The position numbers and the translations under genes are program-made. The notes below the pieces were generated by a model. The model was not told where the DNA came from and searched no databases. It saw only the letters and a list, made by a program, of their open reading frames with translations. Below, piece by piece: positions 5,050 to 27,482 of a stretch of DNA of 32,608 nt. Location of the stretch: positions 1 to 32,608 of the forward strand of contig JAIDCC010000111.1 of assembly GCA_029056055.1 (NCBI GenBank), written 5' to 3'. The stretch is from Duncaniella sp. Lineage in GTDB: Bacteria > Bacteroidota > Bacteroidia > Bacteroidales > Muribaculaceae. Position 1 is the first letter of the stretch, and the number at the start of each line of letters is the position of its first letter.

Positions 5050-5127
5050 GGGAAATTTTTACCATCCCCGCTCAGGCTCGGTAGGCAAAAACCGGCTGAA
5101 AGAGCGGTCTATCCTTATACCTTAACA

Positions 5128-6816: not shown

Positions 6817-6845
6817 TCATCTGATTTACACCACGCTCTGAAAGA

Positions 6846-7802
6846 ATGAAAATCAAGCTCATAGCATTGTTCGTGCTGCTCGGCACATTGTGTGCCGGCG
6901 CGGCCGACAAGTGGAAGCACGACATCTACGTGGCGCAGGACGGAAGCGGCGACTACCGCACCCTGACCGAAGCGCTCGAAGGAATACGCGCCTTCATGGA
7001 ATACACGGTGACGGTGCACATCGCTCCCGGCACATATAAGGAAAAGGTGGTGATACCCTCGTGGCTCACCAACGTGACGTTCCGCGGAGAAAACCCGGAA
7101 AACACCGTCATCACCTTCGACCACCACGCCAACATCGACAACATGGGCACGTTCCGCACCTACACCCTCAAGTGTGAAGGGTCGGACATCCTGTTTGAAA
7201 ACCTCACCATCGAAAACAACGCTCCCCGTCTGGGACAGGCCGTGGCTCTCCACACCGAGGGCGACCGTCTGACGTTCCGCAACTGCCGTCTGCTCGGCAA
7301 TCAGGACACCATCTTCACCGGCGGCAAACACAAGCGTCTGTTCTTCGACCGTTGCTATGTGGAAGGCACCACCGACTTCATCTTCGGACCCGCCACAGCT
7401 TACTTCAAGGACTGCGAAATCCGCTCGAAAACCAACAGCTACATCACGGCCGCTTCGACTCCCGAGGATGTAGAGGTGGGCTACGTATTCGACGGCTGCC
7501 GTCTGACCGCCGAGCCTGAGGCCACGCAAGTCTACCTCGGCCGTCCCTGGCGTCCGTTTGCCCACACCGTGTTCATCAACTGCGAGATGGGCGGACATAT
7601 CCGTCCCGAGGGTTGGCACAACTGGCGCAACCCCGACAACGAGAAGACCGCCCGCTACGGTCAATACGGCTGCACCGGACCCGGAGCAAATGAAGAAGGT
7701 CGCGTAGACTGGGTGAAAAACCCCGACGCTGCCACCGCTGCCGCGCTGACCGACCTTCAGAAAGTCTTTGCCGTCACCTCGTCGTGGCAACCCGCGCAGT
7801 GA
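6846..7802 (+). CDS. Pectin methylesterase (CE8)
   Basis: The 318-residue secreted enzyme removes methyl esters from homogalacturonan, giving methanol and pectate that polygalacturonase can attack. A signal peptide (about residues 1-20) precedes a right-handed beta-helix domain filling the rest. All catalytic residues of family CE8 are recognisable: Gln131 (GQAVALH), Gln153 and Asp154 (GNQDTIF), Asp177 (GTTDFIFG) and Arg233 (LGRPWR). Length is normal for a single-domain bacterial enzyme. It starts 29 bp after the GH43 gene and is followed by galacturonate catabolism genes, so it supplies the same pathway. The protein is likely intact and active. Confidence 0.95.
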   Translation: MKIKLIALFVLLGTLCAGAADKWKHDIYVAQDGSGDYRTLTEALEGIRAFMEYTVTVHIAPGTYKEKVVIPSWLTNVTFRGENPENTVITFDHHANIDNMGTFRTYTLKCEGSDILFENLTIENNAPRLGQAVALHTEGDRLTFRNCRLLGNQDTIFTGGKHKRLFFDRCYVEGTTDFIFGPATAYFKDCEIRSKTNSYITAASTPEDVEVGYVFDGCRLTAEPEATQVYLGRPWRPFAHTVFINCEMGGHIRPEGWHNWRNPDNEKTARYGQYGCTGPGANEEGRVDWVKNPDAATAAALTDLQKVFAVTSSWQPAQ

Positions 7803-7869
7803 GGTAACCTCTCCCCCGCAAACTCCAAATTGAGAAAAAACAACTAACAACATACTACACGAAAGTATC

Positions 7870-9354
7870 ATGAAAGCCCTTAACAAATTTACAGCTCCCA
7901 AAGCGGTAGCTCCCGAACGCATCATCCAGTTTGGCGAAGGAAACTTCCTGCGCGCATTCGTAGATTGGATTGTCAAGAACATGAACGACAAGACCACGTT
8001 CAACTCGAGCGTGGTGTGTGTGCAGGGCACCCCCGACGCCTTCGTAATGCAGCTGCTCGAAGGCCAGAGCTGTCTCTACCACGTCAACCTCCAGGGCCGT
8101 CTCGACGGCGAGGTCATCAACTCGCTCACCCGCATCGACGTCATCTCGCGCGGCGTCAACCCCTTCACCCAGACCGACGCTTTCTTCGCGCTGGCCGACC
8201 AGCCCGAGATGCGTTTCGTCATCTCTAACACCACTGAGGCCGGCATCTGCTTCGACGACACCTGCAAGCTCACCGACCGCCCCGCTTCGTCGTATCCCGG
8301 CAAGCTCACCCAGCTCCTCTACCGCCGCTACAAGACCTTCAACGGTGCTGCCGACAAGGGCTTCATCATCATGCCTTGCGAGCTCATCTTCGAGAACGGT
8401 CACCATCTGAAAGAGTGCATCTTCAAGTATATCGAACTCTGGAAAGAGGAACTCGGCGCCGACCACGACGGCTTCAAGAAATGGTTTGAAGAGTCGTGCT
8501 ACGTATGCTCGACACTCGTCGACCGCATCGTGCCCGGATTCCCCCGCAAGGACATCAAGCAGATTCAGGAAAAGCTCGGCTACCAGGACAACGTCGTGGT
8601 GCAGGGCGAGGCTTTCCACCTCTGGGTAATCGAACGCGCCTCAAACATGACCATCGAACAGCTCCGCGAAGAGTTCCCCGCCGAAAAGGCAGGTCTTCAG
8701 GTGCTCATCACCGACTCCGAGGCTCCCTACCACGAACGTAAGGTGACCCTGCTCAACGGCCCGCACACCGTGCTTTCGCCCGTGGCCTTCCTGAGCGGCG
8801 TAGACATCGTGCGCGATGCCTGCAACCACCCCGTCATCGGCAAGTACATCCACAAAGTGCAGTTCGATGAACTCATGCAGACTCTCAACCTCCCCATGGA
8901 AGAGCTGCAGAAGTTTGGCGCCGACGTGCTCGAACGTTTCAACAACCCCTACGTCGACCACCAGGTGACCTCAATCATGCTCAACTCCTTCCCCAAATAT
9001 CAGACCCGCGACCTGCCCGGCCTCAAGACCTATCTCGAGCGCAAGGGCGAGCTGCCCAAGGGTCTCGTGCTCGGTCTCGCAGCGCTCATCACCTACTACA
9101 AGGGCGGCAAGCGTGAAGACGGCACCCCCATCGTGCCCAACGACGACCAGCGCATCATGGACCTCCTCACCGAGCTCTGGGCTACCGGCGACACCCGCAA
9201 GGTGGCTGAAGGCGTTCTCGGCGCGAAAGACCTCATCTGGGGCGTGCAGGGCGACCTCAACGAAGTGCCCGGCCTCACCGACCTCGTCACATACTACCTC
9301 GACGAAATCCAGAAGAAGGGTATGCTCGAAGTAGTGAAGGAAGTTGTAGAATAA
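7870..9354 (+). CDS. uxaB: Tagaturonate reductase (altronate oxidoreductase)
   Basis: The 494-residue cytoplasmic enzyme belongs to the polyol-specific long-chain (mannitol dehydrogenase) family and would reduce D-tagaturonate to D-altronate with NADH, the second step of galacturonate catabolism. The N-terminal Rossmann motif is IIQFGEGNFLRAF (residues 18-30). The family catalytic signature is Lys291, Asn296 and His299 (KVTLLNGPHT). The length matches UxaB. Fructuronate reductase (UxuB) is a paralogue; the neighbouring uxaA supports UxaB. The gene lies 67 bp after the methylesterase and 9 bp before uxaA, within the operon. Confidence 0.93.
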   Translation: MKALNKFTAPKAVAPERIIQFGEGNFLRAFVDWIVKNMNDKTTFNSSVVCVQGTPDAFVMQLLEGQSCLYHVNLQGRLDGEVINSLTRIDVISRGVNPFTQTDAFFALADQPEMRFVISNTTEAGICFDDTCKLTDRPASSYPGKLTQLLYRRYKTFNGAADKGFIIMPCELIFENGHHLKECIFKYIELWKEELGADHDGFKKWFEESCYVCSTLVDRIVPGFPRKDIKQIQEKLGYQDNVVVQGEAFHLWVIERASNMTIEQLREEFPAEKAGLQVLITDSEAPYHERKVTLLNGPHTVLSPVAFLSGVDIVRDACNHPVIGKYIHKVQFDELMQTLNLPMEELQKFGADVLERFNNPYVDHQVTSIMLNSFPKYQTRDLPGLKTYLERKGELPKGLVLGLAALITYYKGGKREDGTPIVPNDDQRIMDLLTELWATGDTRKVAEGVLGAKDLIWGVQGDLNEVPGLTDLVTYYLDEIQKKGMLEVVKEVVE

Positions 9355-9363
9355 GCTCCGCGC

Positions 9364-10881
9364 ATGAAAGATTTCCTCAAAATCAATCCCGCCGACAACG
9401 TGGCCGTGGCCATCAATCCCTTGGCCAAGGGCACGGTTGTCGACGTCGAGGGCACGGGCGAAGTGACACTCGTCACCGACGTGCCTGCCGGACATAAGTT
9501 TGCCCTGCGCGACCTCGCCGAGGGTGAGAACGTCATCAAGTATGGCTTCCCCATCGGTCACACCCGTCACGCCGTGGCCAAAGGCGCGTTCCTCGACCAC
9601 AACGACATCAAGACCAACCTCGAAGGTCAGCTCGACTATTCGGATATCTCTATCAAAAATCCGTCGCCCGCAGCTCCCGGCGCAGCTCTCGGAGAGGCTA
9701 AGGAAGCTACGTTCCGCGGCTTCGAACGCAAAGACGGTCAGGTGGGCATCCGCAACGAAATCTGGGTGATTCCTACCGTGGGTTGCGTCAACGGCATCTG
9801 CAAGCAAATCGTCGACCGCGTCAACGCCGAGACAGGGGCCGAGGGTGTCGACGGCATCTTTGCCTTCCCCCACAACTACGGCTGCTCGCAGCTTGGCGAC
9901 GACCACGAGAATACGAAGAAAATCCTGCGCGACATGGTGCACCACCCCAACGCCGGCGGTATACTCGTCGTGGGTCTCGGTTGCGAAAACAATCAGCCCC
10001 GTGTGTTCGAGGAGTTCTGCGGCGACTACGACCGCGACCGTGTCAAGTTCATGGTCTGCCAGGAAGTCGAGGGCGACGAGGTGGAATATGGTGTCAAGGT
10101 GCTCACCGACCTCTATCGTCAGGCCCGCACCTTCGAGCGCACCGAGCAGCCCGCCTCAAAGCTGCGCATCGGTCTGAAGTGCGGCGGCTCCGACGGCTTC
10201 TCGGGCATCACGGCCAACCCCCTGCTCGGTGAGTTCTCCGACTGGCTCTGCGAAGTGGAAGGCGGAACGACCGTGCTCACCGAAGTGCCCGAAATGTTTG
10301 GCGCCGAAACCATCCTGATGGAACGTTGCGCCAACCCCGAGCTTCTCGGCGAAACCATCTCGCTCATCAACAACTTCAAGCAATATTTCCTCAGCCACGG
10401 CGAACCTGTGGGCGAAAACCCCTCGCCCGGCAACAAGGCCGGCGGCATCTCCACTCTTGAGGAGAAGGCTCTCGGCTGCACACAGAAGTCGGGCAAAAGC
10501 CCTGTCTTCGGCGTGCTTGAATATGGCGAGCGCATCCACAACCATGGCCTCAACCTGCTCTCGGCTCCCGGCAACGACCTCGTGGCTTCGACAGCACTCG
10601 CTGCCGCAGGATGCCAGATGGTGCTCTTCACGACAGGCCGCGGCACTCCCTTCGGCACTTTCGTCCCCACGATGAAAGTTTCGACCAACTCTGGACTCGC
10701 TCAGCGCAAACCGACGTGGATTGACTTCAATGCCGGCGTCCTCGCCGAAGACCGTTCGATGGCCGAAGTCGTCAAAGACTTCATCGGCTACGTCCTCGCA
10801 GTGGCAAACGGTGAGAAAGTACATTCCGAAAAAGCCGGTATCCACGAAATTTCAATCTTCAAGAACGGCGTCACCCTCTGA
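9364..10881 (+). CDS. uxaA: Altronate dehydratase
   Basis: The 505-residue cytoplasmic enzyme dehydrates D-altronate to 2-keto-3-deoxygluconate. It has the full UxaA layout: an N-terminal SAF domain (about residues 5-95) and the C-terminal UxaA domain (about 115-505), with conserved segments FPHNYGCSQLGDDHE, LGCENNQ and GLKCGGSDGFSGIT that carry candidate metal-binding Cys and His residues. The family normally depends on iron or another divalent metal. Length matches the fused form found in Enterobacteria and Bacteroidetes. It begins 9 bp after uxaB. The kinase and aldolase (kdgK, kdgA) needed for the following steps are not in this window. Confidence 0.95.
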   Translation: MKDFLKINPADNVAVAINPLAKGTVVDVEGTGEVTLVTDVPAGHKFALRDLAEGENVIKYGFPIGHTRHAVAKGAFLDHNDIKTNLEGQLDYSDISIKNPSPAAPGAALGEAKEATFRGFERKDGQVGIRNEIWVIPTVGCVNGICKQIVDRVNAETGAEGVDGIFAFPHNYGCSQLGDDHENTKKILRDMVHHPNAGGILVVGLGCENNQPRVFEEFCGDYDRDRVKFMVCQEVEGDEVEYGVKVLTDLYRQARTFERTEQPASKLRIGLKCGGSDGFSGITANPLLGEFSDWLCEVEGGTTVLTEVPEMFGAETILMERCANPELLGETISLINNFKQYFLSHGEPVGENPSPGNKAGGISTLEEKALGCTQKSGKSPVFGVLEYGERIHNHGLNLLSAPGNDLVASTALAAAGCQMVLFTTGRGTPFGTFVPTMKVSTNSGLAQRKPTWIDFNAGVLAEDRSMAEVVKDFIGYVLAVANGEKVHSEKAGIHEISIFKNGVTL

Positions 10882-10982
10882 TGCCCGACTGAGACATATC
10901 AATCATCTCTGAGGAGCGCCTGCCCCCGACGGCGACGCTCTCTCGGAGACTTCATCTGACAAGAACCTTAACAACAGCAATT

Positions 10983-12398
10983 ATGAAGCCTTTCATGGAC
11001 GAAAACTTCCTGCTGCAGACCGAAACCGCGCAGAAGTTATATCACGAGCATGCGGCCAAAATGCCCATCATCGACTACCACTGCCACCTCATCCCCAAGA
11101 TGGTGGCCGACGACCACAAGTTTAAATCTATCACCGAAATCTGGCTCGGCGGCGACCACTACAAGTGGCGTGCAATGCGCTCCAACGGCGTAGACGAACG
11201 CTTCTGCACCGGCACCGACACAACAGACTGGGAAAAATTCGAGAAGTGGGCCGAGACCGTACCCTACACCTTCCGCAACCCCCTCTACCACTGGACTCAT
11301 CTGGAGCTCAAGACAGCTTTCGGCATCGACAAGCTGCTCAACCCCGAGACCGCACGCGAAATCTTCGAGGAATGTAACGACAAGCTCCTCAACGACCCCA
11401 ACATGACCGCCCGCGGCCTCATGCGTCGCTACAACGTCGAGACCGTCTGCACCACCGACGACCCCGTCGACTCGCTCGAATATCACAAGCAGGTGAAAGA
11501 CAGCGGCTTCGAAATCAAGATGCTCCCCACCTGGCGTCCCGACAAGGCTATGGCCGTCGAAGACCCCGCCGAGTTCCGCGCTTACGTCGAGAAGCTCGCC
11601 GAAGTATCAGGCGTTGAAATCTCGAAGTTCCAGGACATGATTGACGCCCTCCAGAAGCGTCACGACTTCTTCGAGGAAATGGGCTGCCGCCTCTCCGACC
11701 ACGGCATCGAAGAGTTTTATGCCGAAGACTACACCGACGACGAGATTGCACGCATCTTCGACAAGGTGTATGGCGGCCAGCAACTCACCAAGGAGGAAAT
11801 CGCCAAGTTTAAGAGCGCCATGCTCGTCATCTTCGGCGAAATGGACTACAACTCCGGCTGGACTCAGCAGTTCCACTACGGTGCCATCCGCAACAACAAC
11901 ACCAAGATGTTCAAACTGCTCGGTCCCGACACCGGCTTCGACTCTATCGGCGAATTTACAACGGCCAAGAGCTGCGCAAAATTCCTCGACAAGCTCAACA
12001 CCCGCGGCAAGCTCACCAAGACCATCCTCTACAACCTCAACCCCTCGGCCAACGAAGTAATCGCCACGATGCTCGGCAACTTCCAGGACGGCACCGTGCC
12101 CGGCAAAATCCAGTTTGGTTCTGGCTGGTGGTTCCTCGACCAGAAAGACGGTATGCAGAAGCAGATGAACGCACTCTCTACCCTCGGTCTGCTCAGCCGT
12201 TTCGTCGGCATGCTCACCGACTCGCGCTCGTTCCTCTCTTATCCCCGCCACGAATACTTCCGTCGCACCCTCTGCAACCTCGTCGGCACCGACATCGAGA
12301 ACGGCGAAGTGCCCTACACCGGCTACGAGCAGGAGCGTGTCAACAAGATGATTGAAGACATCTGCTACAACAACGCTAAAAACTACTTTAAATTCTAA
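10983..12398 (+). CDS. uxaC: Uronate (glucuronate/galacturonate) isomerase
   Basis: The 471-residue cytoplasmic enzyme, of the amidohydrolase superfamily, interconverts D-galacturonate and D-tagaturonate, and D-glucuronate and D-fructuronate. The N-terminus (KPFMDENFLLQTETAQ) and the metal-site motif DYHCHL (His33, His35) are typical of UxaC, and the length is normal. It sits 101 bp after uxaA; that gap contains an imperfect GC-rich hairpin around 10914-10940, possibly an mRNA processing or stability element. The start codon of exuT follows the stop by 3 bp. In this set it performs the first intracellular step. Confidence 0.95.
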   Translation: MKPFMDENFLLQTETAQKLYHEHAAKMPIIDYHCHLIPKMVADDHKFKSITEIWLGGDHYKWRAMRSNGVDERFCTGTDTTDWEKFEKWAETVPYTFRNPLYHWTHLELKTAFGIDKLLNPETAREIFEECNDKLLNDPNMTARGLMRRYNVETVCTTDDPVDSLEYHKQVKDSGFEIKMLPTWRPDKAMAVEDPAEFRAYVEKLAEVSGVEISKFQDMIDALQKRHDFFEEMGCRLSDHGIEEFYAEDYTDDEIARIFDKVYGGQQLTKEEIAKFKSAMLVIFGEMDYNSGWTQQFHYGAIRNNNTKMFKLLGPDTGFDSIGEFTTAKSCAKFLDKLNTRGKLTKTILYNLNPSANEVIATMLGNFQDGTVPGKIQFGSGWWFLDQKDGMQKQMNALSTLGLLSRFVGMLTDSRSFLSYPRHEYFRRTLCNLVGTDIENGEVPYTGYEQERVNKMIEDICYNNAKNYFKF

Positions 12399-12401
12399 GC
12401 G

Positions 12402-13919
12402 ATGGCAGCCGCAGCTACTCCCCTCCAGCAGGCCAACCAGAAGATGACCAACTTCCGTTGGACCATCTGCGCCCTGCTCTTCCTCGCAACGACTGTCAAC
12501 TATATGGACCGTCAGGTGCTCTCGCTCACCTGGAAAGAGTTCATATCGCCCGAATTCCACTGGACCGATGCCAACTACGGCCTCATCACCGCCGTGTTCT
12601 CGATAGTCTATGCCGTGGCCAACCTTCTCGCTGGCCGCTTCATCGACTGGATGGGCACCAAGAAAGGCTATCTCTGGGCCATCGGCATCTGGAGCGCCGG
12701 CGCGTGTCTTCACGCCGCTTGCGGTTGGGCCACCGAAATGACCCTCGGTCTCCACAACGCCACAGAACTTCTCGATGCCGCCGGCACTATGGCCGTCACC
12801 ATCGCCACTGTTTCGGTCTACTTCTTCCTCGGTGCCCGCACCATCCTCGCCCTCGGTGAGGCCGGCAACTTCCCCGCTGCCATCAAGGTGACCGCCGAAT
12901 ACTTCCCGAAACGCGACCGCGCTTATGCAACGTCGATTTTCAACGCCGGTTCGGCTGTAGGCGCGCTCATCGCTCCCTTCACCATCGGCCCGCTCGCCAA
13001 GTTCTTCCAGAGCATCGGCTGGGGCAACGGCTGGGAAATGGCTTTCATCGTCATCGGTGCCCTCGGCTTCATCTGGATGGGTTTCTGGGTAGTGCTCTAC
13101 AAGACCCCTGCCTCCAACCCCCACGTGAATGCCGCCGAGCTCGCCTACATCGAGCAGGACAATGAGACAGCTGATGAAACAGCCCGTCAGAAGGCTGTCG
13201 AAGAAGACGTAAAGGAGAAATCCATCCCCTTCTTCCAGTGCTTCAAGTATCCCCAGACCTGGGCTGTGTTCTTCGGCAAGTTCCTCACCGACGGTGTATG
13301 GTGGTTCTTCCTCTTCTGGACTCCCGCCTACATCACCGACGTGTTCAAGCTCTCTACCTCGTCGGGCGAAGGCATGCTGATGATCTTCGTGCTCTACCTC
13401 ATCACGATGCTCTCCATCTACGGTGGTAAGCTCCCGACCATCTTCATCGACCGCGCCGCACGCAAGGGCATTCAGGTCAACCCCTACTCTGCCCGTATGC
13501 GCGCCATGCTCATCTTTGCTGTATTCCCCCTCCTCGCACTCCTCGCACAGCCTCTGAGCGGTGTGTCGCCCTGGCTCCCCATCATCATCATCGGTATCGC
13601 AGGAGCAGCCCACCAGTCGTGGTCGGCCAACATCTACTCGGTTGTAGGCGACATGTTCCCCAAATCCACCATCGCCACCATCATCGGTATCGGCGGCATG
13701 GCAGGCGGTCTCGGCTCGTTCCTCATCAACTACTTCTCGGGCATCCTCTTCGACTATGCCGACCAGGTGCAGATGTCGTTTATGAGCTTCACCGGCAAAC
13801 CCGCGGGCTATTTCATCGTGTTCTGCATCTGCGGCGTGGCCTACCTCGTCGGCTGGCTCATCATGATTATGCTCGTGCCCCGCTACAAGGTCATCGAACT
13901 CCCCGAAAACCTGCGCTAA
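12402..13919 (+). CDS. exuT: Hexuronate MFS transporter (ExuT-like)
   Basis: The 505-residue inner-membrane protein of the major facilitator superfamily (anion:cation symporter group) probably imports galacturonate/glucuronate with protons. It has about 12 hydrophobic segments. The family motif NYMDRQVLS lies in the first segment and a GEAGNFPAAIK motif lies near residue 150. It is longer than E. coli ExuT, with extra residues between segments 3 and 4 and in the central loop. The ATG lies 3 bp after the uxaC stop, so translation is probably coupled. A closely related sugar-acid substrate such as altronate cannot be excluded, but the uxaBAC context makes hexuronate most likely. It ends the operon. 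Confidence 0.88.
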   Translation: MAAAATPLQQANQKMTNFRWTICALLFLATTVNYMDRQVLSLTWKEFISPEFHWTDANYGLITAVFSIVYAVANLLAGRFIDWMGTKKGYLWAIGIWSAGACLHAACGWATEMTLGLHNATELLDAAGTMAVTIATVSVYFFLGARTILALGEAGNFPAAIKVTAEYFPKRDRAYATSIFNAGSAVGALIAPFTIGPLAKFFQSIGWGNGWEMAFIVIGALGFIWMGFWVVLYKTPASNPHVNAAELAYIEQDNETADETARQKAVEEDVKEKSIPFFQCFKYPQTWAVFFGKFLTDGVWWFFLFWTPAYITDVFKLSTSSGEGMLMIFVLYLITMLSIYGGKLPTIFIDRAARKGIQVNPYSARMRAMLIFAVFPLLALLAQPLSGVSPWLPIIIIGIAGAAHQSWSANIYSVVGDMFPKSTIATIIGIGGMAGGLGSFLINYFSGILFDYADQVQMSFMSFTGKPAGYFIVFCICGVAYLVGWLIMIMLVPRYKVIELPENLR

Positions 13920-13987
13920 TCCTCGGCAAGTGTTTTTCCCCGAGTAAAAAATTTGTTAAAAATTTTTCGTATTTCGGGGAAAAGCAT

Positions 13988-13995
13988 TACTTTTG
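13988..13995 (+). promoter_or_regulatory. -7 box of the ferredoxin gene
   Basis: TACTTTTG fits TAnnTTTG and lies 74 bp upstream of the ferredoxin start codon. The -33 partner is weak (a T-rich stretch ending near 13969). The AT-rich gap after exuT suits a separate promoter. Confidence 0.5.
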
Positions 13996-14069
13996 CATCA
14001 TCAATCGACTCTCTCCATTGTCGAAAGAACTCATTTTTATCCCATCCATAACATAATCTTTTTACTACT

Positions 14070-14240
14070 ATGGCTTACGTAATCAACGACAACTGCGTAG
14101 CTTGCGGCACCTGCGAGCCCGTATGTCCCACCGAATCTATCACTCCCGGCGACATCTATGCAATCAACCCCGACACCTGCATCGACTGCGGTTCTTGCGC
14201 AGAGGTTTGCCCCAGCGACGCTATCCACCCCGCTGAATAA
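14070..14240 (+). CDS. 2[4Fe-4S] ferredoxin
   Basis: This short gene encodes a 56-residue clostridial-type ferredoxin, an electron carrier in anaerobic metabolism (for example with pyruvate:ferredoxin oxidoreductase, hydrogenase or Rnf). Two complete cluster motifs are present: Cys9, Cys12, Cys15 and Cys19 (CVACGTCEPVCP) and Cys37, Cys40, Cys43 and Cys47 (CIDCGSCAEVCP). The length is typical. The sequence ends with a TAA, and a strong hairpin terminator follows 41 bp later, so it is probably a monocistronic unit with its own promoter at 13988. It has no obvious pathway link to the uronate genes. Identification is secure; the electron partner is unknown. Confidence 0.95.
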   Translation: MAYVINDNCVACGTCEPVCPTESITPGDIYAINPDTCIDCGSCAEVCPSDAIHPAE

Positions 14241-14281
14241 TTCAGTCGAGGCCCGATAGATAAAACCTCAACCCATAAGTC

Positions 14282-14320
14282 GAGGCCGACACCGATTTGC
14301 GTGTGTCGGCCTCGCGCTTT
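14282..14320 (+). terminator. Intrinsic terminator after ferredoxin
   Basis: A perfect 11-bp stem, GAGGCCGACAC (14282-14292) with GTGTCGGCCTC (14303-14313), encloses a 10-nt loop and is followed by GCGCTTTTA. It lies 41 bp after the ferredoxin stop. Confidence 0.8.
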
Positions 14321-14414
14321 TACCCCTTGCTCCACGCCACCGGCCGCTTCGGAGGCTCCCACTTTTCATCACACACTCCCACGTCTCGACTTCCGGCTTC
14401 CGCCCAGACTCCAA

Positions 14415-15620
14415 ATGAACAAGCTGAAAGAACTCGCATCTATGCCGGCCTTCCCGGTCTTGCTCGCCCTGAGTGCATCTCACGCGCTCAACGACCTGCT
14501 GCAATCGGTCATCACGGCCGTCTATCCCATGCTCAAGGCCGACCTCCACTTAGACTTCGCACAAATAGGCATCATCACACTGGTCTATCAGATTGCCGCC
14601 TCGATATTCCAGCCCGTCGTCGGCTATGCTTTCGACCGCCGCCCCTTCGTATTCTCCCTCCCATTCGGCATGGTGTCCACCTCACTCGGCATCACACTCT
14701 TCGCCTTATGCGACACCATGGCCGGCATCCTCGTGGCCGTATTCCTTGTAGGCATCGGCTCCGCCACACTCCATCCCGAAGCCTCGCGCATCACCTCGTT
14801 GGCCGGACGCGCACGCCGTGGCTTCGCCCAGTCAGTGTTTCAGGTCGGCGGCAATTTCGGCGGTTCCATCGGCCCGCTGCTCGTAGCCCTCATCGTCGCG
14901 CCCCACGGCCGCCGCTATGTGCTGTGGTTTCTCGTCTTTTCCACTCTGGCTTTTGCCGCCATGCGCCCCATCGTGAAATGGTATCGCGCCTATCTGGCCG
15001 ATGTCAAGACCAATCCCCAGGCCCACGTCAAAAGTCTCAAGCTTCCCCTCTCCAAGCGCAAGACCTTCTTCGTGATTTGCGTCATAATGGTGCTGATTTT
15101 CTCGAAATATGTCTACATGGCCTCACTGTCGAGCTACTACACCTTCTACCTCATTCAAAAATTCGGCGTCTCGGTCAAGATGTCGCAGATTTTTCTCTTC
15201 ATCTTCGTAGTCTCTACCGCAGCAGGAACATTGGTGGGTGGTCCGATTGGCGACCGCTACGGACGCAAGCTCGTCATCTGGGTTTCAATCCTCGGCACCG
15301 CGCCGTTCTCGATGCTTCTCCCTTACGTTTCGCTCCCCCTCACGGCGGTGCTCAGTTTCTGCGCCGGCTTCATGCTCTCGTCGGCCTTCCCGGCCATCCT
15401 GCTCTACGCGCAGGAACTCCTCCCTACCAAGCTCGGCATGATTTCCGGACTCTTCTTCGGATTTGCCTTCGGAGTCGGCGGCATAGCTTCGGCCGTCCTC
15501 GGCACGTTTGCCGACACCTACGGCATCGAAGCCATCTACAACGCCTGCGCCTACATGCCTCTTCTGGGCATAGTGGCTTGCCTGCTGCCTAATCTCAAAA
15601 ACCGCCGCCTCCCTCAATGA
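14415..15620 (+). CDS. MFS exporter of the fosmidomycin-resistance (Fsr) type
   Basis: The 401-residue inner-membrane protein has about 12 hydrophobic segments and an N-terminal signature (SHALNDLLQSVITAVYP) typical of Fsr-like major facilitator exporters. These proteins are linked to export of fosmidomycin or other small hydrophilic compounds, but most have no tested substrate. The ATG at 14415 is chosen because the longer in-frame opening at 14301 lies inside the preceding terminator. The motif GDRYGRK in the central loop is a standard MFS feature. No good promoter is visible between the terminator and the start; low-level readthrough is possible. The following gene starts from its own promoter. 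Confidence 0.85.
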   Translation: MNKLKELASMPAFPVLLALSASHALNDLLQSVITAVYPMLKADLHLDFAQIGIITLVYQIAASIFQPVVGYAFDRRPFVFSLPFGMVSTSLGITLFALCDTMAGILVAVFLVGIGSATLHPEASRITSLAGRARRGFAQSVFQVGGNFGGSIGPLLVALIVAPHGRRYVLWFLVFSTLAFAAMRPIVKWYRAYLADVKTNPQAHVKSLKLPLSKRKTFFVICVIMVLIFSKYVYMASLSSYYTFYLIQKFGVSVKMSQIFLFIFVVSTAAGTLVGGPIGDRYGRKLVIWVSILGTAPFSMLLPYVSLPLTAVLSFCAGFMLSSAFPAILLYAQELLPTKLGMISGLFFGFAFGVGGIASAVLGTFADTYGIEAIYNACAYMPLLGIVACLLPNLKNRRLPQ

Positions 15621-15644
15621 GTTTGGCAGATTTGAGGGCCGAGG

Positions 15645-15676
15645 TTTGGCACTCACACGATTTTTTCTTAACTTTG
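15645..15676 (+). promoter_or_regulatory. Promoter of the acetylesterase/GH28/mur gene run
   Basis: TTTG at 15645-15648 and TAACTTTG at 15669-15676 are separated by exactly 20 bp, matching the Bacteroidetes primary promoter (TTTG, 19-21 bp, TAnnTTTG). It leaves a leader of about 30 nt before the ATG at 15714. Confidence 0.8.
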
Positions 15677-15713
15677 TGGTTTAAACAGGTCATACCCTCA
15701 CTTCAACTCACCT

Positions 15714-16568
15714 ATGAAAATTCTTAAATCTTTTTTGCTCGCGCTTGCCATGCCCATGCTCGCTTCGGCTGCCGAGCCCGCCGACACTCTCACAGTGTTT
15801 ATGATAGGCGATTCCACCATGGCTAACAAACCTCTCGACAAGGAAAATCAGGAACGCGGTTGGGGGCAGATGCTCTCCATGCATCTCACCGGCCCCGTGC
15901 GCGTCGACAATCACGCCGTCAACGGCCGCTCGTCGAAGTCGTTTCTCGACGAAGGTCGCTGGGATGTGGTGAAACAGAAAATCCGCCCCGGCGACTACGT
16001 CATCATCCAGTTCGGCCACAACGACGAGAAGAGCAAAGACCCCAAGCGCTTCACCGCTCCCGGCTCGACATTCGATGAAAACCTCCGCCTCTACGTCAAA
16101 CAGGCCCGCGAACTCGGTGCCATCCCCGTGCTGATGAATTCCATTGCGCGCCGCAATTTCCCCGCCGGTCAGGAAGACCTCGCCTCCGAGAGCGACGACC
16201 ATCAGAAGGAGTGGAACGTAGGTCTTTCCGAAATGCCTCGCGAGGGCAAGACGCTTGTCGATACCCACGGAGCCTACCTCGACTCGCCGCGAAAGGTGGC
16301 CGAAGAGACAGGCGCCACGTTTATCGACCTCAACGCCCTCACCATGGATCTCGTGCAGCAGATGGGTCCCGAATTTTCAAAAAACATCTACATGTGGATT
16401 CCCGCCGACACCTATGAGTTCTGCCCCAAAGGCAAGGTCGACAACACTCATCTCAATGTGCTCGGTGCAATCATCGTCAGCAAGCTCGCCGCCGTCGAAC
16501 TCGCCCGCAACGTCGAGGGTCTCCGTCCCTACGTGCGCCCCGAGGTCTACAACCTCAACGCGAAATAA
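15714..16568 (+). CDS. Rhamnogalacturonan acetylesterase (CE12-type SGNH hydrolase)
   Basis: The 284-residue secreted esterase is predicted to remove acetyl groups from rhamnogalacturonan or acetylated pectin. After a signal peptide (about residues 1-20) it shows the SGNH blocks: Ser34 (IGDSTMAN), Gly71 region (VNGRSSKSF), Asn103 (FGHNDEKS) and the Asp243/His246 pair (VDNTHLN). Spacing and length match CE12 enzymes of the RhgT/YesT type. It is the first gene after a strong promoter and is followed 40 bp later by the GH28 polygalacturonase, so the two probably act together on pectin outside the cytoplasm. Confidence 0.9.
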   Translation: MKILKSFLLALAMPMLASAAEPADTLTVFMIGDSTMANKPLDKENQERGWGQMLSMHLTGPVRVDNHAVNGRSSKSFLDEGRWDVVKQKIRPGDYVIIQFGHNDEKSKDPKRFTAPGSTFDENLRLYVKQARELGAIPVLMNSIARRNFPAGQEDLASESDDHQKEWNVGLSEMPREGKTLVDTHGAYLDSPRKVAEETGATFIDLNALTMDLVQQMGPEFSKNIYMWIPADTYEFCPKGKVDNTHLNVLGAIIVSKLAAVELARNVEGLRPYVRPEVYNLNAK

Positions 16569-16608
16569 CCTCCCTTCACCTTAAATCATCAATCTGCTTT
16601 CCCTGAAA

Positions 16609-17883
16609 ATGAAAACTTCACGTCTGCTCGCCGCCATGCTCCTCGCCGGAGCCTCAGTGTGCGCTTCAGCCAAAGACTTTGTCATCACCGACTACGGTGT
16701 CTCCACCGACTCCACAGCCATCCAGTCCGCTGCCATCCAAGCTGTCATCGACCGCGCCGAGGCCGAGGGGGGTGGCCGCATCGTCGTGCCCGAAGGCACT
16801 TTCCTCACCGGCGCGCTCTTCTTCAAACCGGGCACCTCTCTCTATCTCGAAAAAGGGGCCGTCATCAAGGGCATCGACGACATTGCCCACTACCCTCTCA
16901 TCCCCTCGCGCATGGAGGGCCGCAGCATCTACTATCACGCCGCTCTCATCAACGCCTACTTCGTCGATAATTTCTCTATCAGCGGAAGCGGCATAATCAA
17001 TGGCAACGCCGCCAAATTCTGGGACGAGTTCTGGGCGCTGCGCGAGGAGCGTCGCAAGATTGGCAAGTCGTGCACCAACCTCGAAGTGCGCCGCCCGCGC
17101 CTGGTGTTCATGTGGGGCTGCGACTCACTCACCATCTCGGGCGTTCAGCTCCGCAACTCCGCGTTCTGGACCACCCACCTCTACCAGTGCCACAACGTGC
17201 TGATTGAAAATGCCACCATCTACGCTCCCACCAAACCCGTCAAAGCTCCGTCAAGCGACGCCATCGACCTCGACGTGTGCAGCAACGTCACCGTGCGCGG
17301 CTGCTTCATCGACTGCAACGACGACGCCGTTTGCATCAAGGGCGGTAAGGGCGTCTATGCCAACGTGTCGCCCGAAAACGGCATCGTCGAGAACGTCCTC
17401 GTCGAAAATTGCCATTTCGGCCCCAACTGCCACGGCACGCTCACCATGGGCAGCGAGTGCATCCACGCACGCAACATCACGCTGCGCGATTGCACCGTCG
17501 ACACCCACACCTCGATTCTCCGCCTCAAGATGCGTCCCGACACCTATCAGATTTACGAGAACATCACCATCTCGGGCGTCAAGGGCACCTGCGGTTCGGT
17601 CATCGACATGAAGCCCTGGAAACAGTTCTTCACCCTCGAAGGCTCGTCGCTCAAACCCTACGGCATCGTGCGCAATATCCTCATTGAAAACGTCGACGCC
17701 ACTATCGACAACGTTGGCACCATTGCCGGAAATCCCGACGACACCGTGAGCAACTTCGCTCTGAAAAACATCACTCTGAAATCGGCCCCCGACAAAACGC
17801 CCGAGTTTGTCTGCAACTACCCCACCGTGGTGCTCGACAACGTGACTCTTGACGGAAAGAAAGTAACAAATCCTGCAAAGTGA
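16609..17883 (+). CDS. Polygalacturonase-type glycoside hydrolase family 28
   Basis: The 424-residue secreted beta-helix enzyme hydrolyses alpha-1,4-galacturonan or rhamnogalacturonan. A signal peptide (about residues 1-21) is followed by the pectate-lyase-superfamily opening segment (ITDYGVSTDSTAIQ). The GH28 active-site residues are recognisable: Asp217/Asp220 (SSDAIDLD), Asp238 and Asp239 (CNDDAVCIK), His275 (NCHGTLTMG, in place of the usual GHG) and Arg305/Lys307 (LRLKMRP). The first motif differs from the classical NTDG and suggests the exo-acting or oligosaccharide-active branch; that is inferred. Its stop codon overlaps the GTG start of murB. Confidence 0.92.
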   Translation: MKTSRLLAAMLLAGASVCASAKDFVITDYGVSTDSTAIQSAAIQAVIDRAEAEGGGRIVVPEGTFLTGALFFKPGTSLYLEKGAVIKGIDDIAHYPLIPSRMEGRSIYYHAALINAYFVDNFSISGSGIINGNAAKFWDEFWALREERRKIGKSCTNLEVRRPRLVFMWGCDSLTISGVQLRNSAFWTTHLYQCHNVLIENATIYAPTKPVKAPSSDAIDLDVCSNVTVRGCFIDCNDDAVCIKGGKGVYANVSPENGIVENVLVENCHFGPNCHGTLTMGSECIHARNITLRDCTVDTHTSILRLKMRPDTYQIYENITISGVKGTCGSVIDMKPWKQFFTLEGSSLKPYGIVRNILIENVDATIDNVGTIAGNPDDTVSNFALKNITLKSAPDKTPEFVCNYPTVVLDNVTLDGKKVTNPAK

Positions 17884-23325: not shown

Positions 23326-24672
23326 ATGAAAAAGTCTTTTGCCGAACGATACAAGGCCATCTACGACAAAATGCTCGCGCGGTGGCAGTATGCTTCCGAA
23401 GGCGTGTGGGCCGACCATCGCGACACGTTGAAGGTCAACGTTCTCAAGACCATCAACCTCACCGTGCGCACGTTCATGAGCTCCGACCTACAGAACAAGG
23501 CCGGAGCCTTGACCTATCAGACCCTCCTCGCGCTCGTGCCTATCCTCGCGCTCCTCTTCGCCATCGGGCGCGGTTTCGGCTTCGGCAACATGCTCCAGGA
23601 CGAATTGCTGCGCTACTTCCCCTCGCAGCACAAAGCCCTCGAAATGGCTTTCAAGTTTGTCGACTCCACGCTTGCCCAGGCTTCCGAAGGTATTTTCGTC
23701 GGTGTCGGCATTGTCTTCCTGCTCTGGACCATCATCTCGCTCCTCAGCAATGTCGAAGAGATGTTCAATCAGGTATGGAACGTCAAAGTCGACCGCTCCA
23801 TGACCCGTAAGCTCGTCGACTACCTCGCCATCTGCATCATCCTCCCCGTGCTGATGATTTGCTCGGGAGGCATTCAGATTTTCATGTCGTCGGCCATCCA
23901 GCGCTTTCTCCCCTACGATTTCCTTTCGCCCGTCCTCTCGCTGCTTTTCGACTTCATGAGCGTGGTCTTCGCATGGCTATTCTTCGCCGGCGCCTACATG
24001 CTCATCCCCAACGCGAAAGTCAAGTTCAGCAACGCCATCATCGCGGGCGTTCTGGCCGGCACCGCCTTTCAGCTGCTCCAATGGGTGTTCCTGTCAGGCC
24101 AGATGTACGTGTCAAAGTACAACGCCATCTACGGCTCTTTCTCCTTCCTGCCCTTGCTCCTCATCTGGATGCAGTTTTCGTGGCTCATCTGTCTCGCCGG
24201 TGCATTGGTGTGTCATGCCGCACAAAACATTTCAATGTACTCTTATTCGCGCCACGTCCGCGACATTTCCCCTGCCTATGCCCGCGAAGTGTGCGTCGCG
24301 GTCCTCTCGGTGATTCTGAAACGCTTTCGCGACGAGCAGCGCCCCATCAACTCCTCACAACTCTCCGAACTCTACAAAATCCCCTGGCGTCTGTCGGTCG
24401 AGTCGGTCGACCGCCTCATCCGCTGCGGCCTTCTCATCCGGGTGATGCCCACACCCGAAATGAAGGAGACCGACGGTCAGGCCGCCGTGCAGCCCGCGAT
24501 GAGCCTCGAACATTACACTCTCGCCGAAGTCATCTCCCGATTCGAAACCACCGGCGAGGACGATTTCGTCGACTCATTCCCCTCGGCCTTCCCCAAAGTC
24601 GTGGCCGAGATGGAGCGCGTCCGTGCCGCCGTTCAGTCAGCCGCCTCCTCCACCCTCGTCCAAGACCTCTGA
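23326..24672 (+). CDS. YihY/BrkB family inner-membrane protein
   Basis: The 448-residue protein belongs to the YihY/virulence factor BrkB family (once called ribonuclease BN by mistake). Six hydrophobic segments can be seen at about 60-80, 120-142, 162-186, 196-224, 236-256 and 266-296, with the conserved ALTYQTLLALVPILALLF segment in the first. The C-terminal 150 residues are soluble and resemble a winged-helix fold (LSELYKIPWRLSVESVDRLI), as in the longer Bacteroidetes members. The biochemical role of the family is not established. It follows the lipoprotein by 10 bp and precedes the phosphoethanolamine transferase gene by 34 bp. Confidence 0.88.
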   Translation: MKKSFAERYKAIYDKMLARWQYASEGVWADHRDTLKVNVLKTINLTVRTFMSSDLQNKAGALTYQTLLALVPILALLFAIGRGFGFGNMLQDELLRYFPSQHKALEMAFKFVDSTLAQASEGIFVGVGIVFLLWTIISLLSNVEEMFNQVWNVKVDRSMTRKLVDYLAICIILPVLMICSGGIQIFMSSAIQRFLPYDFLSPVLSLLFDFMSVVFAWLFFAGAYMLIPNAKVKFSNAIIAGVLAGTAFQLLQWVFLSGQMYVSKYNAIYGSFSFLPLLLIWMQFSWLICLAGALVCHAAQNISMYSYSRHVRDISPAYAREVCVAVLSVILKRFRDEQRPINSSQLSELYKIPWRLSVESVDRLIRCGLLIRVMPTPEMKETDGQAAVQPAMSLEHYTLAEVISRFETTGEDDFVDSFPSAFPKVVAEMERVRAAVQSAASSTLVQDL

Positions 24673-24706
24673 CCCCTCAGCCCTAAACCAATCTATTCGC
24701 CATGCG

Positions 24707-25546
24707 ATGAAACAGAAACTCCGTCTGCTGTTCCAAACTTTCTCGGCTCCGCTTACCGACTGTCCACGCGCAGCCTCATTGTTGCTCGCTCTCGGTCTGG
24801 CTATCCCTTTGGCCACCTGCACGAGATGGTTCGTCATGGGCGACTATCCCGCGGTGAGATACTTTGGAAACCTTTTCGTTGCTCTCTGCTACTACCTTGC
24901 GTGCGTATGGATAATGAGCGCCGGGGCCGTGTTTCTCCGTCGGTGGGCACGTTGGGCGGCTAACGTGTGGATAGGCGTTTGCCTCGCCCTCGCTTCTATG
25001 AATTGCTTGATGAACGTGTCCTACTTTGCCATCTACTACGAATGGCCCGGCATCGAGACCGTTGCAGCGACAATGGGTACCAACCGTCAGGAAGCTATTG
25101 AATTCATAGGTTCGTTTTTCTCACCCGACATCCTGATTATCTTGGCTTGCATAGCTATATTCTATCTGATAATCAAAGGATTATACGCAATAGGGGGGGG
25201 GTACTTGTATGAGGTATGTTATGGCTACCATGGCACTCTTCGGCCTGATTGTTCCGGCTTATCGGAACAGGGATGTCTGGTTTGCCACTCTCGCAGGAAA
25301 GATCGATATGATGTGCCGTCTTCCCGAAGACCTTCCGTTGCTCGACGAGCGTCTCCCTCTCTCCGTGACAGACCCGGAGACGCCGCCCGGCCACATCGTG
25401 GTCATTATCGGCGAGAGTCATTCAACCGACTGTTCGCAACTCTATGGATACGACCTCCCCACAAATCCTCTCCTTTCAGCCATGCAGGCCGACTCGTCTC
25501 TATTCGTGTTTACCGACGCGACTTCACGATATTATCACACCATTAA
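24707..25546 (+). CDS. Phosphoethanolamine transferase, N-terminal part (membrane domain), frameshifted
   Basis: Codons 1-162 encode four hydrophobic segments (about 22-40, 52-76, 85-110, 140-162), matching the N-terminal membrane domain of EptA/CptA-type phosphoethanolamine transferases. At the G9 tract (25193-25201) the reading frame shifts relative to the rest of the gene, and everything translated after 25202 in this frame, up to the stop at 25546, is nonsense rich in Arg, Ser and Pro. Removing one G joins it to the next open frame and gives a continuous 535-residue protein, the normal size of the family, with the fifth membrane segment supplied by the downstream part. The ATG at 24707 is preferred over the open frame to 24623, which lies inside the YihY gene. 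Confidence 0.75.
   Translation: MKQKLRLLFQTFSAPLTDCPRAASLLLALGLAIPLATCTRWFVMGDYPAVRYFGNLFVALCYYLACVWIMSAGAVFLRRWARWAANVWIGVCLALASMNCLMNVSYFAIYYEWPGIETVAATMGTNRQEAIEFIGSFFSPDILIILACIAIFYLIIKGLYAIGGGYLYEVCYGYHGTLRPDCSGLSEQGCLVCHSRRKDRYDVPSSRRPSVARRASPSLRDRPGDAARPHRGHYRRESFNRLFATLWIRPPHKSSPFSHAGRLVSIRVYRRDFTILSHH
25193..25201 (+). repeat. G9 homopolymer tract inside the phosphoethanolamine transferase gene
   Basis: Nine consecutive G residues sit between the fourth and fifth membrane-segment codons. Upstream codons are in one frame and downstream codons are in the frame that would be reached with eight (or eleven) Gs. Such tracts mutate by slipped-strand mispairing and are classic on/off switches, for example in Campylobacter; a sequencing or assembly error is the main alternative. 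Confidence 0.85.
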
Positions 25547-26315
25547 CTGCTTCAGAAGTTTCATGACAGCCACTCACGATGACAAACCCTGGAATGAGTG
25601 CGAAAATGCCTTCGAGGTTGCCGCCTCACGGGGCTATCAGACTTTCTGGCTATCTAATCAGAGTCCCGTGGGTTTCAATGACAATGCGATTGCAACGATG
25701 GCCTCTCGCGCCGATAAGGTGGTCTACACCACCGTGCCCGGTGAGGTCGACTACAGCGCGCTGCCCTACGACGAGGCTCTCACGTCTATGCTCGACAGTC
25801 TCATAGCCCCTGGAAGCAAACAATTGTTCTTCGTCCACCTTATGGGTTCGCACCGGAGTTTCGAAAATCGCTATCCCGCCGATCGCGGGCATTTCCAACC
25901 TACCGATTACACTGCCTATCCTGCCGCCCAACGTGAAGACCGTGCGTGCTATGACAATTCGATTCTCTACAACGACTCTGTCGTCAGCACCCTCTTCCGG
26001 CGTCTCGACTCTCTCGATGCTGTCGGGCTCTATTTCTCAGACCATGGCGTCGACGTGTTTCAATCTCCCTCCGTGACACGTATCACCCATGCCAATTCCG
26101 ACTCGTTGAGCATGAAAGCGGCTGCCCGCATTCCGATGCTCATCTACGCCTCGCCGCGCTATCGCACAACCCACCCTCTCAAAATGGAACGTCTGCGCCG
26201 TTCGCTCGACACCCCGGTGAAAAACACACAGATGGTCTACACTCTGATGGACATGATGGGTGTGAGGTTTCGCGATGACAACCGCGTAGACAGCTTGTCG
26301 GCCATCCGCCCCTGA
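25209..26315 (+). CDS. Phosphoethanolamine transferase, C-terminal sulfatase-fold part
   Basis: This 368-codon frame holds the fifth membrane segment (residues 4-19) and the periplasmic catalytic domain of an EptA/CptA-like enzyme that moves phosphoethanolamine from phosphatidylethanolamine to lipid A or core sugars. Metal and catalytic positions are visible: Glu69 (IIGESHS), the likely nucleophile Thr111 (YHTINCF), His210 and His215 (HLMGSH) and Asp278/His279 (FSDHG). Either it is translated only when the upstream G tract has a compatible length, or the ATG at 25209 is used as an internal start, giving a protein with a single membrane segment. The domain itself is intact, so the gene does not look like an old pseudogene. 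Lipid A modification would lower negative surface charge and protect against cationic peptides. Confidence 0.82.
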   Translation: MRYVMATMALFGLIVPAYRNRDVWFATLAGKIDMMCRLPEDLPLLDERLPLSVTDPETPPGHIVVIIGESHSTDCSQLYGYDLPTNPLLSAMQADSSLFVFTDATSRYYHTINCFRSFMTATHDDKPWNECENAFEVAASRGYQTFWLSNQSPVGFNDNAIATMASRADKVVYTTVPGEVDYSALPYDEALTSMLDSLIAPGSKQLFFVHLMGSHRSFENRYPADRGHFQPTDYTAYPAAQREDRACYDNSILYNDSVVSTLFRRLDSLDAVGLYFSDHGVDVFQSPSVTRITHANSDSLSMKAAARIPMLIYASPRYRTTHPLKMERLRRSLDTPVKNTQMVYTLMDMMGVRFRDDNRVDSLSAIRP

Positions 26316-26401
26316 CAACAGTACAAAATTACGCAATCCTGCCACGAAAATAGTGCGATTATCCCGGCACGACTTTCCGGACTCCACACTTTCCCTTAAA
26401 A

Positions 26402-27451
26402 ATGACAACTCAAGGACGAATCACATATCTCGACACTGCACGCGGACTGGCCATTTTCACCGTACTCTACAGCCATGTGTGCATCTTCTGCCTCCCCGAC
26501 TACAACGCATCCGCGATTCTCGGCTTTCTGCGTAACTACTATCTCAACGCATTCTTTTTCGTAGCCGGATTCTTCGCGCTGCGCAGCCACATTCCGTCGG
26601 TGCGTGAAGCCGCGGGACAGATGTGGCGCAAGACCATGCAGCTTTTGCTACCTACGGTGATTGTCGGTAGCATCTACACTTTGACGCACGGCTCCTACAT
26701 GGACGATTTCATCTATGCTCCGGCCAAGAACGGCTATTGGTTCACGTTGGTGCTCTACGAAATGTTCCTCCTCTATTATGCCCCCGAGGCTGTGGCCACG
26801 ATGTGCGGCTGCAGACACCTTGTGATGCTGGGATTAGTTGTAATCGTTTCATGCGGGCTCTACGTTGTGCAGAACGTCCGGCCTTTCTCGGGTCCTGCTG
26901 CCGACATTCTGTGTCTCACCAACCTCGCCTATGCGTTCATCTACTTTGTCGCAGGACTCGTCGCACGTCAGTACCGGGCAGAGATTTCTCGTGTCGTCGA
27001 TGCGCGAAACGGTATCCTTATCACTGCGATAGTGTGCTTCGTGATTGCGGGTTATATTGTCAGCCTGCCCAAAACGCTCCATCAGGCAGCTATCCTCGTG
27101 GCCGTGGTCTACGTGTTGCGGCGTCTTTCAACCTCCTCCCGGTTAGAGGGTGCGGTACGTCCCGTCATCAATCTGTTCACTTGGCTCGGCTCATATACGC
27201 TCGAAATCTATTTCATCCACTATTTCCTGCTTTTCCGCCTGCCCGACCCACTCGCACGCTTCATCACCACCTCTCTCAACGCCGACCTCTCACTGAGCTT
27301 TCCCGAGTTTCTCACCATCGGGGCATTGGTTGTCGTCCTTAGCTATTTCAGCGTCCTCATAGCATGTTTCATAAAACAGATACCATATTCCTCTCTCCTG
27401 GCGTTCGGCAAGACTGCCGCCTCCGCACGCCCCTCCGCCTCTCCTGAATAG
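26402..27451 (+). CDS. Acyltransferase family 3 membrane protein
   Basis: The 349-residue integral membrane protein has about ten hydrophobic segments and the Acyltransferase_3 (OafA/OatA-type) N-terminal signature: Asp11 and Arg14 (YLDTARGLAIF) and His25 (LYSHVCIF). Members move acyl groups, mainly acetyl, onto surface sugars, O-antigen, peptidoglycan or secreted polymers. No extracellular SGNH domain is fused, so it is the short form. It lies 86 bp after the phosphoethanolamine transferase, on the same strand; both would alter surface glycolipids or glycans. The acceptor cannot be deduced from sequence. Confidence 0.87.
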   Translation: MTTQGRITYLDTARGLAIFTVLYSHVCIFCLPDYNASAILGFLRNYYLNAFFFVAGFFALRSHIPSVREAAGQMWRKTMQLLLPTVIVGSIYTLTHGSYMDDFIYAPAKNGYWFTLVLYEMFLLYYAPEAVATMCGCRHLVMLGLVVIVSCGLYVVQNVRPFSGPAADILCLTNLAYAFIYFVAGLVARQYRAEISRVVDARNGILITAIVCFVIAGYIVSLPKTLHQAAILVAVVYVLRRLSTSSRLEGAVRPVINLFTWLGSYTLEIYFIHYFLLFRLPDPLARFITTSLNADLSLSFPEFLTIGALVVVLSYFSVLIACFIKQIPYSSLLAFGKTAASARPSASPE

Positions 27452-27482
27452 AAATCAAAAAACCACATAATAATAATCCATC

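What the first reader, a model, noticed from the sequence alone, without database searches (positions are those of the whole stretch)
24707..26315. G9 tract puts a phosphoethanolamine transferase out of frame by one base: candidate phase-variable surface switch
Seen: nine Gs at 25193-25201 lie between membrane segments four and five; upstream and downstream coding frames are both clean and differ by one base. With eight (or eleven) Gs the gene gives a continuous 535-residue protein with five membrane segments and an intact sulfatase-fold domain, the normal EptA/CptA size. Known: poly-G tracts are slipped-strand switches in other bacteria. Inferred: cells could switch lipid A/core phosphoethanolamine addition, and so resistance to cationic peptides, on and off. 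The next gene, an acyltransferase-3, is also a surface modifier.
Basis: partly seen in the sequence, partly recalled or inferred. Interest (0 to 1): 0.85.

Follow-up and report, generated by a model that had tools for sequence, protein, structure and literature searches.

The report
Surface enzyme gene with G-tract switch
A gut-type bacterium carries a gene for a surface-decorating enzyme that falls out of frame where nine Gs stand in a row, and related bacteria show the same pattern in other surface genes, so it is probably a random on/off switch of a kind already known elsewhere, although no sequencing reads were available to prove it.

Summary
A G9 run at 25193-25201, the only G/C run of 7 or more in the window, separates two same-strand frames that are halves of one phosphoethanolamine (PEtN) transferase; searched apart, both match CptA best. 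Homologues are common (298 of 397 family genomes, own included); none of 67 examined has a G/C run of 8 or more.

New points. (1) The gene and the acyltransferase behind it are a two-gene insert: in 20 of 20 informative genus relatives the flanking BrkB and RidA genes are neighbours. (2) The same genome has a type III methyltransferase with an in-frame G9; two relatives have G9 there in frame, a third has G10 with the frame broken. (3) Other genus members have frame breaks at G/C runs in acyltransferase, glycosyltransferase and SusC-like genes.

Best reading: a slipped-strand on/off switch of a CptA-like surface modifier, assembled OFF (0.6). Rivals: assembly error, gene decay. The lipid A/polymyxin inference is weak. 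Such switches of PEtN-type transferases are known in Neisseria: a new member of a known kind; ten literature searches listed none in this bacterial group.

The parts
25193..25201 (+). G9 tract, candidate slippage site
24707..25192 (+). upstream half: N-terminal membrane part of a CptA-like PEtN transferase (162 codons)
   Evidence: NCBIfam CptA 52-133/577, E 3.1e-5; own profile 28.3 bits against at most 8.0 in 200 shuffles
25209..26315 (+). downstream half: catalytic sulfatase-fold domain, in another frame
   Evidence: PF00884 E 2.9e-35; CptA 234-541/577, E 6e-52; EptC structure 5zzu E 1.7e-34; five putative catalytic residues conserved 35 of 35 (their roles are recalled)
26402..27451 (+). acyltransferase-3 gene, second gene of the insert, intact
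   Evidence: PF01757 E 2.2e-16; at E <= 0.001 in only one other genus genome (2 of 27 including own)
24673..27482 (+). two-gene insert between BrkB and RidA
   Evidence: BrkB and RidA are neighbours in 20 of 20 informative relatives; G+C 0.535 against 0.576 and 0.587 for the flanking genes
23326..24672 (+). left flank, BrkB family gene
   Evidence: PF03631
27483..27857 (+). right flank, RidA-like (Ribonuc_L-PSP) gene
   Evidence: PF01042

Best explanation
A CptA-like PEtN transferase, gained together with an acyltransferase as a two-gene insert, is switched at random by polymerase slippage on its G tract. In the assembled (OFF) state translation enters a wrong frame after the tract and yields a membrane stub with a foreign tail. 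In another tract state the enzyme would be made and would add PEtN to a surface glycan (LPS core or another acceptor), perhaps together with the acyltransferase. Shown: tract, two halves of one gene, conserved catalytic residues, the insert, and tract-linked frame differences in other genes of this genome's relatives. Inferred: slippage in this strain, reversibility, acceptor, benefit.
For: Frame change bracketed to 48 bases around the window's only long G/C run. Both halves otherwise clean, with E, T, H, D, H conserved in 35 of 35 homologues, so decay is not visible elsewhere. Same genome: type III methyltransferase with in-frame G9; at the same site G9 in frame in G065 and G006, G10 with broken frame in G018 (4 of 30 Mod loci fetched carry a run of 9 or more there). 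Genus: a G012 polysaccharide cluster with C9, G10 and C8, each breaking a frame, where 0.02-0.12 runs of 8 or more were expected; both pieces at the C9 hit acyltransferase PF01757 at 3-167 and 180-322; G025 acyltransferase and G010 SusC-like protein. Codon-usage test: frame breaks at 4 of 7 scorable runs of 9 or more, 1 of 13 runs of 8, 51 of 1,396 random spots; Fisher p 0.031. In print: phase-variable pptA and eptA in Neisseria (PMC3656113, PMC10525099; passages) and a G-tract switch in a gut Bifidobacterium (PMC9187656; abstract and one section).
Against: No read-level or strain-level variation at this tract. Without the window's own tract the Fisher p is 0.071; with the first setting the figures were 3 of 6 against 2 of 10, and the window's tract was not scorable. 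Runs of 9 or more are not in excess over composition. The tract is in none of 67 homologous frames. Codon usage with the small training set preferred a switch point 12 or more bases past the tract. A lipoamide-dehydrogenase-like gene is also broken at a G9 in G008, which looks like error or decay rather than a surface switch. The tract lies about 160 codons into the gene, not at its very start.
Confidence: 0.6

Rival explanations
1. Assembly or sequencing error: the tract length is miscalled in the consensus and the gene is intact in the cells. The tract would still be there and might still slip.
For: G tracts are hard to sequence: PMC9187656 warns that deposited G-tract lengths can be wrong (section 23). 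9 of 16 runs of 9 or more in this assembly lie within 100 bases of contig ends. A lipoamide-dehydrogenase-like gene broken at a G9 in another assembly.
Against: This tract is well inside a contig. The Mod G9 of the same assembly is in frame. Breaks are seen in acyltransferase, glycosyltransferase and SusC-like genes of other assemblies, though that could also reflect which genes hold tracts.
Confidence: 0.22
2. A decaying gene: a one-off slip at the tract has been fixed and the gene is on its way out.
For: The insert is accessory, two intact paralogues exist in the genome, and no other homologue shares the tract.
Against: Both halves are otherwise clean with all five checked catalytic residues kept. 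A slip at such a tract is easily reversed by another slip.
Confidence: 0.13
3. The two frames are used as they are: slippage by RNA polymerase or ribosome, or separate starts (an ATG lies just behind the tract), give product without any DNA change.
For: An ATG at 25209 lies just behind the tract. That G runs can be slippery for polymerases other than the replicase is recalled, not from a call.
Against: The site is not conserved in any of 67 homologous frames; intact homologues carry membrane part and catalytic part in one chain.
Confidence: 0.05

Closest known systems
Neisseria pptA and eptA, transferases phase-variable by homopolymeric tracts in the reading frame (PMC3656113, PMC10525099; passages)
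   Same: PEtN- or ChoP-transferring surface modifiers with a homopolymeric tract inside the reading frame that puts it in or out of frame; for eptA the review lists a genetic island, as here an insert.
   Different: There switching is shown in strains and colonies; here only one assembled state is seen. Our gene is CptA/EptC-like and from another phylum (Bacteroidales-like by inference). That pptA belongs to the same enzyme superfamily is recalled.
Intragenic G-tract switch of pilus clusters in Bifidobacterium breve (PMC9187656; abstract and section 23)
   Same: Gut commensal, G tract inside a gene for a surface structure, replication slippage.
   Different: Gram-positive pilus gene; shown by maximum depth sequencing and in mice, which could not be done here.
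CptA/EptC, PEtN transferase of the LPS core
   Same: Best family hit of both halves and best solved structure of the downstream half.
   Different: Scores far below the family cut-off; acceptor unknown; class described for heptose I in E. coli and Salmonella (PMC10525099 passages).
Phase-variable type III methyltransferases (phasevarions)
   Same: The same genome has a type III methyltransferase with a G tract at a site where length and frame differ between genomes.
   Different: A separate locus; it supports the mechanism and is not the finding itself. Its switching and regulon are untested.
DNA-inversion phase variation of Bacteroides (PMC12632263 and PMC11868660; passages)
   Same: Random switching of surface molecules in gut Bacteroidales.
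   Different: There invertases act, not homopolymer slippage; 'homopolymer' and 'slipped' do not occur in the main text of PMC12632263.

Membership tests
Homopolymeric-tract phase-variable gene | A long homopolymer inside the reading frame at which the frame changes | tested here: met
   exact switch point less sure by codon usage
Homopolymeric-tract phase-variable gene | Different tract lengths at this locus between cells or strains | not testable with these tools
   no reads; no second strain found
Homopolymeric-tract phase-variable gene | Reversible change of phenotype | not testable with these tools
   needs culture
Homopolymeric-tract phase-variable gene | Other tract-switched genes in the same genome | tested here: inconclusive
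   the Mod tract differs in length and frame between genomes, but variation within one strain was not seen; a CHASE2-domain gene has C9 between a short ATG frame and its main frame
PEtN transferase (alkaline phosphatase/sulfatase fold) | Sulfatase domain with the metal-binding and nucleophile residues | tested here: met
   PF00884 above cut-off; E, T, H, D, H conserved in 35 of 35 homologues, a further H in 25 of 35; residue roles recalled
CptA (NCBIfam NF007933) | Score above the curated cut-off (404 bits) | tested here: not met
   halves scored apart: 22.7 and 176.9 bits. They were scored separately, so the whole was not tested, but the sum is also below the cut-off. Hence 'CptA-like', not CptA
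EptA / MCR lipid A PEtN transferases | Score above the curated cut-offs | tested here: not met
   downstream half: EptA NF007160 84.4 bits against 561; best MCR model 66.6 against 1225, tested on one half only

The most novel reading that the evidence does not exclude
This family of gut-type Bacteroidales runs a slipped-strand contingency system beside the inversion switches known in the order: G tracts of about 9 or more switch a type III methyltransferase (a phasevarion) together with sets of surface modifiers (PEtN transferase, acyltransferases, branching glycosyltransferase, SusC-like proteins), so that each cell draws a random surface and methylation state; inserts such as this one bring ready-made switchable modifiers.
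Probability: 0.45. Interest if true: 0.75.

Novelty: new member of a known kind. Interest (0 to 1): 0.52.

Why it matters
If true, one strain of a gut commensal would hold mixed populations that differ in surface chemistry by one base, which annotation hides because the gene is called split or broken. That bears on phage escape, immune recognition and tolerance of host peptides by commensals, and the methyltransferase tract would tie it to genome-wide epigenetic switching. It can be tested at once by counting tract lengths in existing reads.

Tried and rejected
Close relatives of the locus: a genome contigs protein scan (38 stretches matched a pattern, none was confirmed) and a DNA pattern across the tract allowing any length gave nothing, so no strain comparison was possible. 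The tool says that records very near the window may be left out of that collection.

A tract shared by PEtN transferases: rejected; 0 of 67 other homologous frames fetched have a G/C run of 8 or more (68 rows, L043 and L065 being one gene; at least two frames are cut by an end). Rarity of the tract: rejected. A special 'ATGTTAATGGGGGGGG' motif: 40 of 397 genomes match with up to one mismatch, and the reversed-pattern control also matches in many genomes, so nothing is made of it.

Codon-usage classification was run with a strict first setting and a second one at two thresholds. Left out of the ratios at threshold 5: of 48 runs of 9 or more, 38 with one side not coding, 2 on opposite strands, 1 at an edge; of 46 runs of 8, 32 and 1. 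At threshold 8 the ratios are 4 of 7, 1 of 10 and 31 of 1,251 random spots. One of the four breaks (L143) has no family support. The genes behind the tracts were taken from 10 of 27 genus genomes and not all tracts of each (41 tracts in 40 loci); runs of 8 came from 3 genomes.

Literature: ten searches. One search lists six papers that hold both 'Muribaculaceae' and 'phase variation'; I did not open them, and their titles are not about slipped-strand switching. (Duncaniella) lists none. Atack et al. 2018 (10.1093/nar/gky192) is not held. The name Muribaculaceae is my inference from gene content and family size; no call named the organism. No structure was predicted, since the useful model would have needed the gene read through.

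Full report
WHAT IS THERE. Nine Gs stand at 25193-25201, the only G or C run of 7 or more in the window. The frame from ATG 24707 is open up to the tract and then goes on for about 117 codons to a stop at 25546; the other frame opens at the tract and runs to 26315. Codon usage scores the two sides as coding in different + frames (22.5 and 15.3 log units).

ONE GENE IN TWO PIECES. The downstream piece alone is a sulfatase-fold domain (PF00884, E 2.9e-35). Its best solved relative is EptC (5zzu, E 1.7e-34); EptA and MCR chains are weaker. The upstream piece has no Pfam match, but its only NCBIfam match is CptA NF007933 at 52-133 (E 3.1e-5), the model that the downstream piece hits best at 234-541 (E 6e-52). 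A profile of 35 intact homologues (chosen from those fetched; one is a paralogue in the same genome) scores the upstream piece 28.3 bits against at most 8.0 for 200 shuffles. The upstream piece aligns to profile position 148 and the downstream one from 166, so little or nothing is missing between them. Five putative catalytic residues are invariant in 35 of 35 homologues and a further histidine is kept in 25 of 35 (the roles are recalled).

WHERE THE FRAME CHANGES. Homology brackets the change to about 25171-25218, which holds the tract; the chance that the window's only long G/C run falls there is 0.0015. Codon usage is less exact: with 13 training genes it preferred 25213-25240, the tract scoring about 5 log units lower; with 92 frames the tract is within 2.2 units, and for other tract breaks the best point strays by up to 27 bases from the tract end.

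RELATIVES OF THE GENE. Matches occur in 298 of 397 family genomes and 26 of 27 genus genomes, own included, the best at about 40% identity. In the capped list all other matches have open frames of 442 aa or more against 373 here; print two shorter ones, G047 (392, running off its contig end) and G020 (418, not looked into). None of 67 other homologous frames fetched has a G/C run of 8 or more; the longest is 7. The genome holds two more matches with uninterrupted frames of 568 and 592 aa. No second strain of the locus was found.

THE INSERT. BrkB was found in 21 genus relatives (22 of 27 genomes including own). In 20 of their 21 loci RidA follows BrkB with about 200 bases or fewer between the match ends, and no match to the transferase or the acyltransferase; the 21st locus is cut by its contig end. 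So the pair is a two-gene insert of this lineage, of lower G+C (0.535 against 0.576 and 0.587). The ends share only one 9-mer, so how it came is unknown. The acyltransferase has a match in one other genus genome and in 98 of 297 family genomes, own included.

IS THERE A SLIPPAGE SYSTEM? G/C runs of 9 or more are not in excess over composition (16 found; models expect 0.06 to 41), and 9 of the 16 lie within 100 bases of contig ends. But tracts inside genes often go with a frame change. (a) A type III methyltransferase of this genome (best PADLOC model E 7.9e-178) has G9 in frame after 35 codons. Matches occur in 109 of 297 family genomes; of the 30 loci fetched, four have a run of 9 or more at this site: G000, G065 and G006 with G9 and both sides in one frame, G018 with G10 and the sides in different frames. 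(b) A 19-kb contig of G012 with polysaccharide genes has C9, G10 and C8 runs, each with a change of frame, where 0.02-0.12 runs of 8 or more were expected; it was looked at because it had tracts. The pieces at the C9 hit PF01757 at 3-167 and 180-322; upstream of the C8 is PF01757 12-226 while the downstream piece hits nothing; after the G10 comes the Branch glycosyltransferase. (c) In G025 the PF01757 match of an acyltransferase starts at a G9; in G010 the start and the body of a SusC-like protein are in different frames. (d) In a codon-usage test breaks occur at 4 of 7 scorable runs of 9 or more, 1 of 13 runs of 8 and 51 of 1,396 random spots; Fisher p 0.031, or 0.071 without the window's own tract. 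A stricter first setting gave 3 of 6, 2 of 10 and 14 of 867, with the window's tract not scorable. Against the reading, a lipoamide-dehydrogenase-like gene of G008 is broken at a G9, and several tracts are in frame or between genes.

MECHANISM. Most likely the tract slips during replication and turns the enzyme on and off; the assembly shows the OFF state, a membrane stub with a wrong tail. Whether the downstream piece is ever made from its own ATG is untested. The acceptor is unknown: the CptA/EptC class is assigned to heptose I, with mixed statements on peptide resistance (PMC10525099 passages), and nothing here shows lipid A modification.

KNOWN OR NEW. Phase-variable pptA and eptA with homopolymeric tracts are in print for Neisseria (PMC3656113, PMC10525099; passages), and an intragenic G-tract switch for a gut Bifidobacterium, with a warning that deposited tract lengths may be wrong (PMC9187656; abstract and section 23). 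Reviews describe inversions in Bacteroides (PMC11868660, PMC12632263; passages). Ten searches list no paper on slipped-strand switching in this bacterial group, but the library is partial and most listed papers were not opened. The mechanism is known; its use here would be new, and it stays a candidate until tract lengths are counted in reads.

Noticed in passing
L064:2278-3819 (own contig C128:82777-84318; tract 82882-82890), L119, L122, L130: Type III methyltransferase with a G tract after 35 codons: G9 in frame in three genomes, G10 with the frame broken in G018. A phasevarion candidate.
   Followed up: partly
L192 (G012 contig C38), tracts 10317-10325, 13246-13255, 17113-17120: Polysaccharide cluster with three G/C tracts of 8-10, each with a frame change, in two acyltransferases and a Branch glycosyltransferase.
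   Followed up: partly
L134 about 1537-1545 (G008) and L164 about 1527-1535 (G025): Two phage-tail-like proteins (PHROG 21973) both carry a G9 a few codons after or right at a W[TS]PAPED motif: possibly a switch in prophage tail proteins.
   Followed up: partly
L061:2318-2326 (own contig C96:30317-30325): C9 between a short ATG frame and the main frame of a CHASE2-domain gene, as if the true start were out of frame.
   Followed up: partly
L145 about 1522-1530 and L144 about 1524-1532 (G010): SusC-like proteins with a nine-base tract near the start, one with a frame change, one in frame.
   Followed up: partly
L136:1562-1570 (G008): Lipoamide-dehydrogenase-like gene broken at a nine-base tract; does not fit a surface-switch theme and may be an error.
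   Followed up: partly
own contigs C32, C45, C48, C57, C63, C71, C87: 9 of 16 G/C runs of 9 or more lie within 100 bases of contig ends, so assembly breaks and G runs go together in this genome.
   Followed up: no
own contigs C57:35863-35871 and C126:68860-68868: C9 tracts between genes, upstream of an OmpA-like gene and of a DUF4114 gene; possible promoter-spacing switches.
   Followed up: no
window 5008-17883: Run of genes that looks like pectin/uronate breakdown: GH43, pectinesterase, mannitol-dehydrogenase type, altronate dehydratase, UxaC, two MFS transporters, GDSL esterase, GH28.
   Followed up: partly
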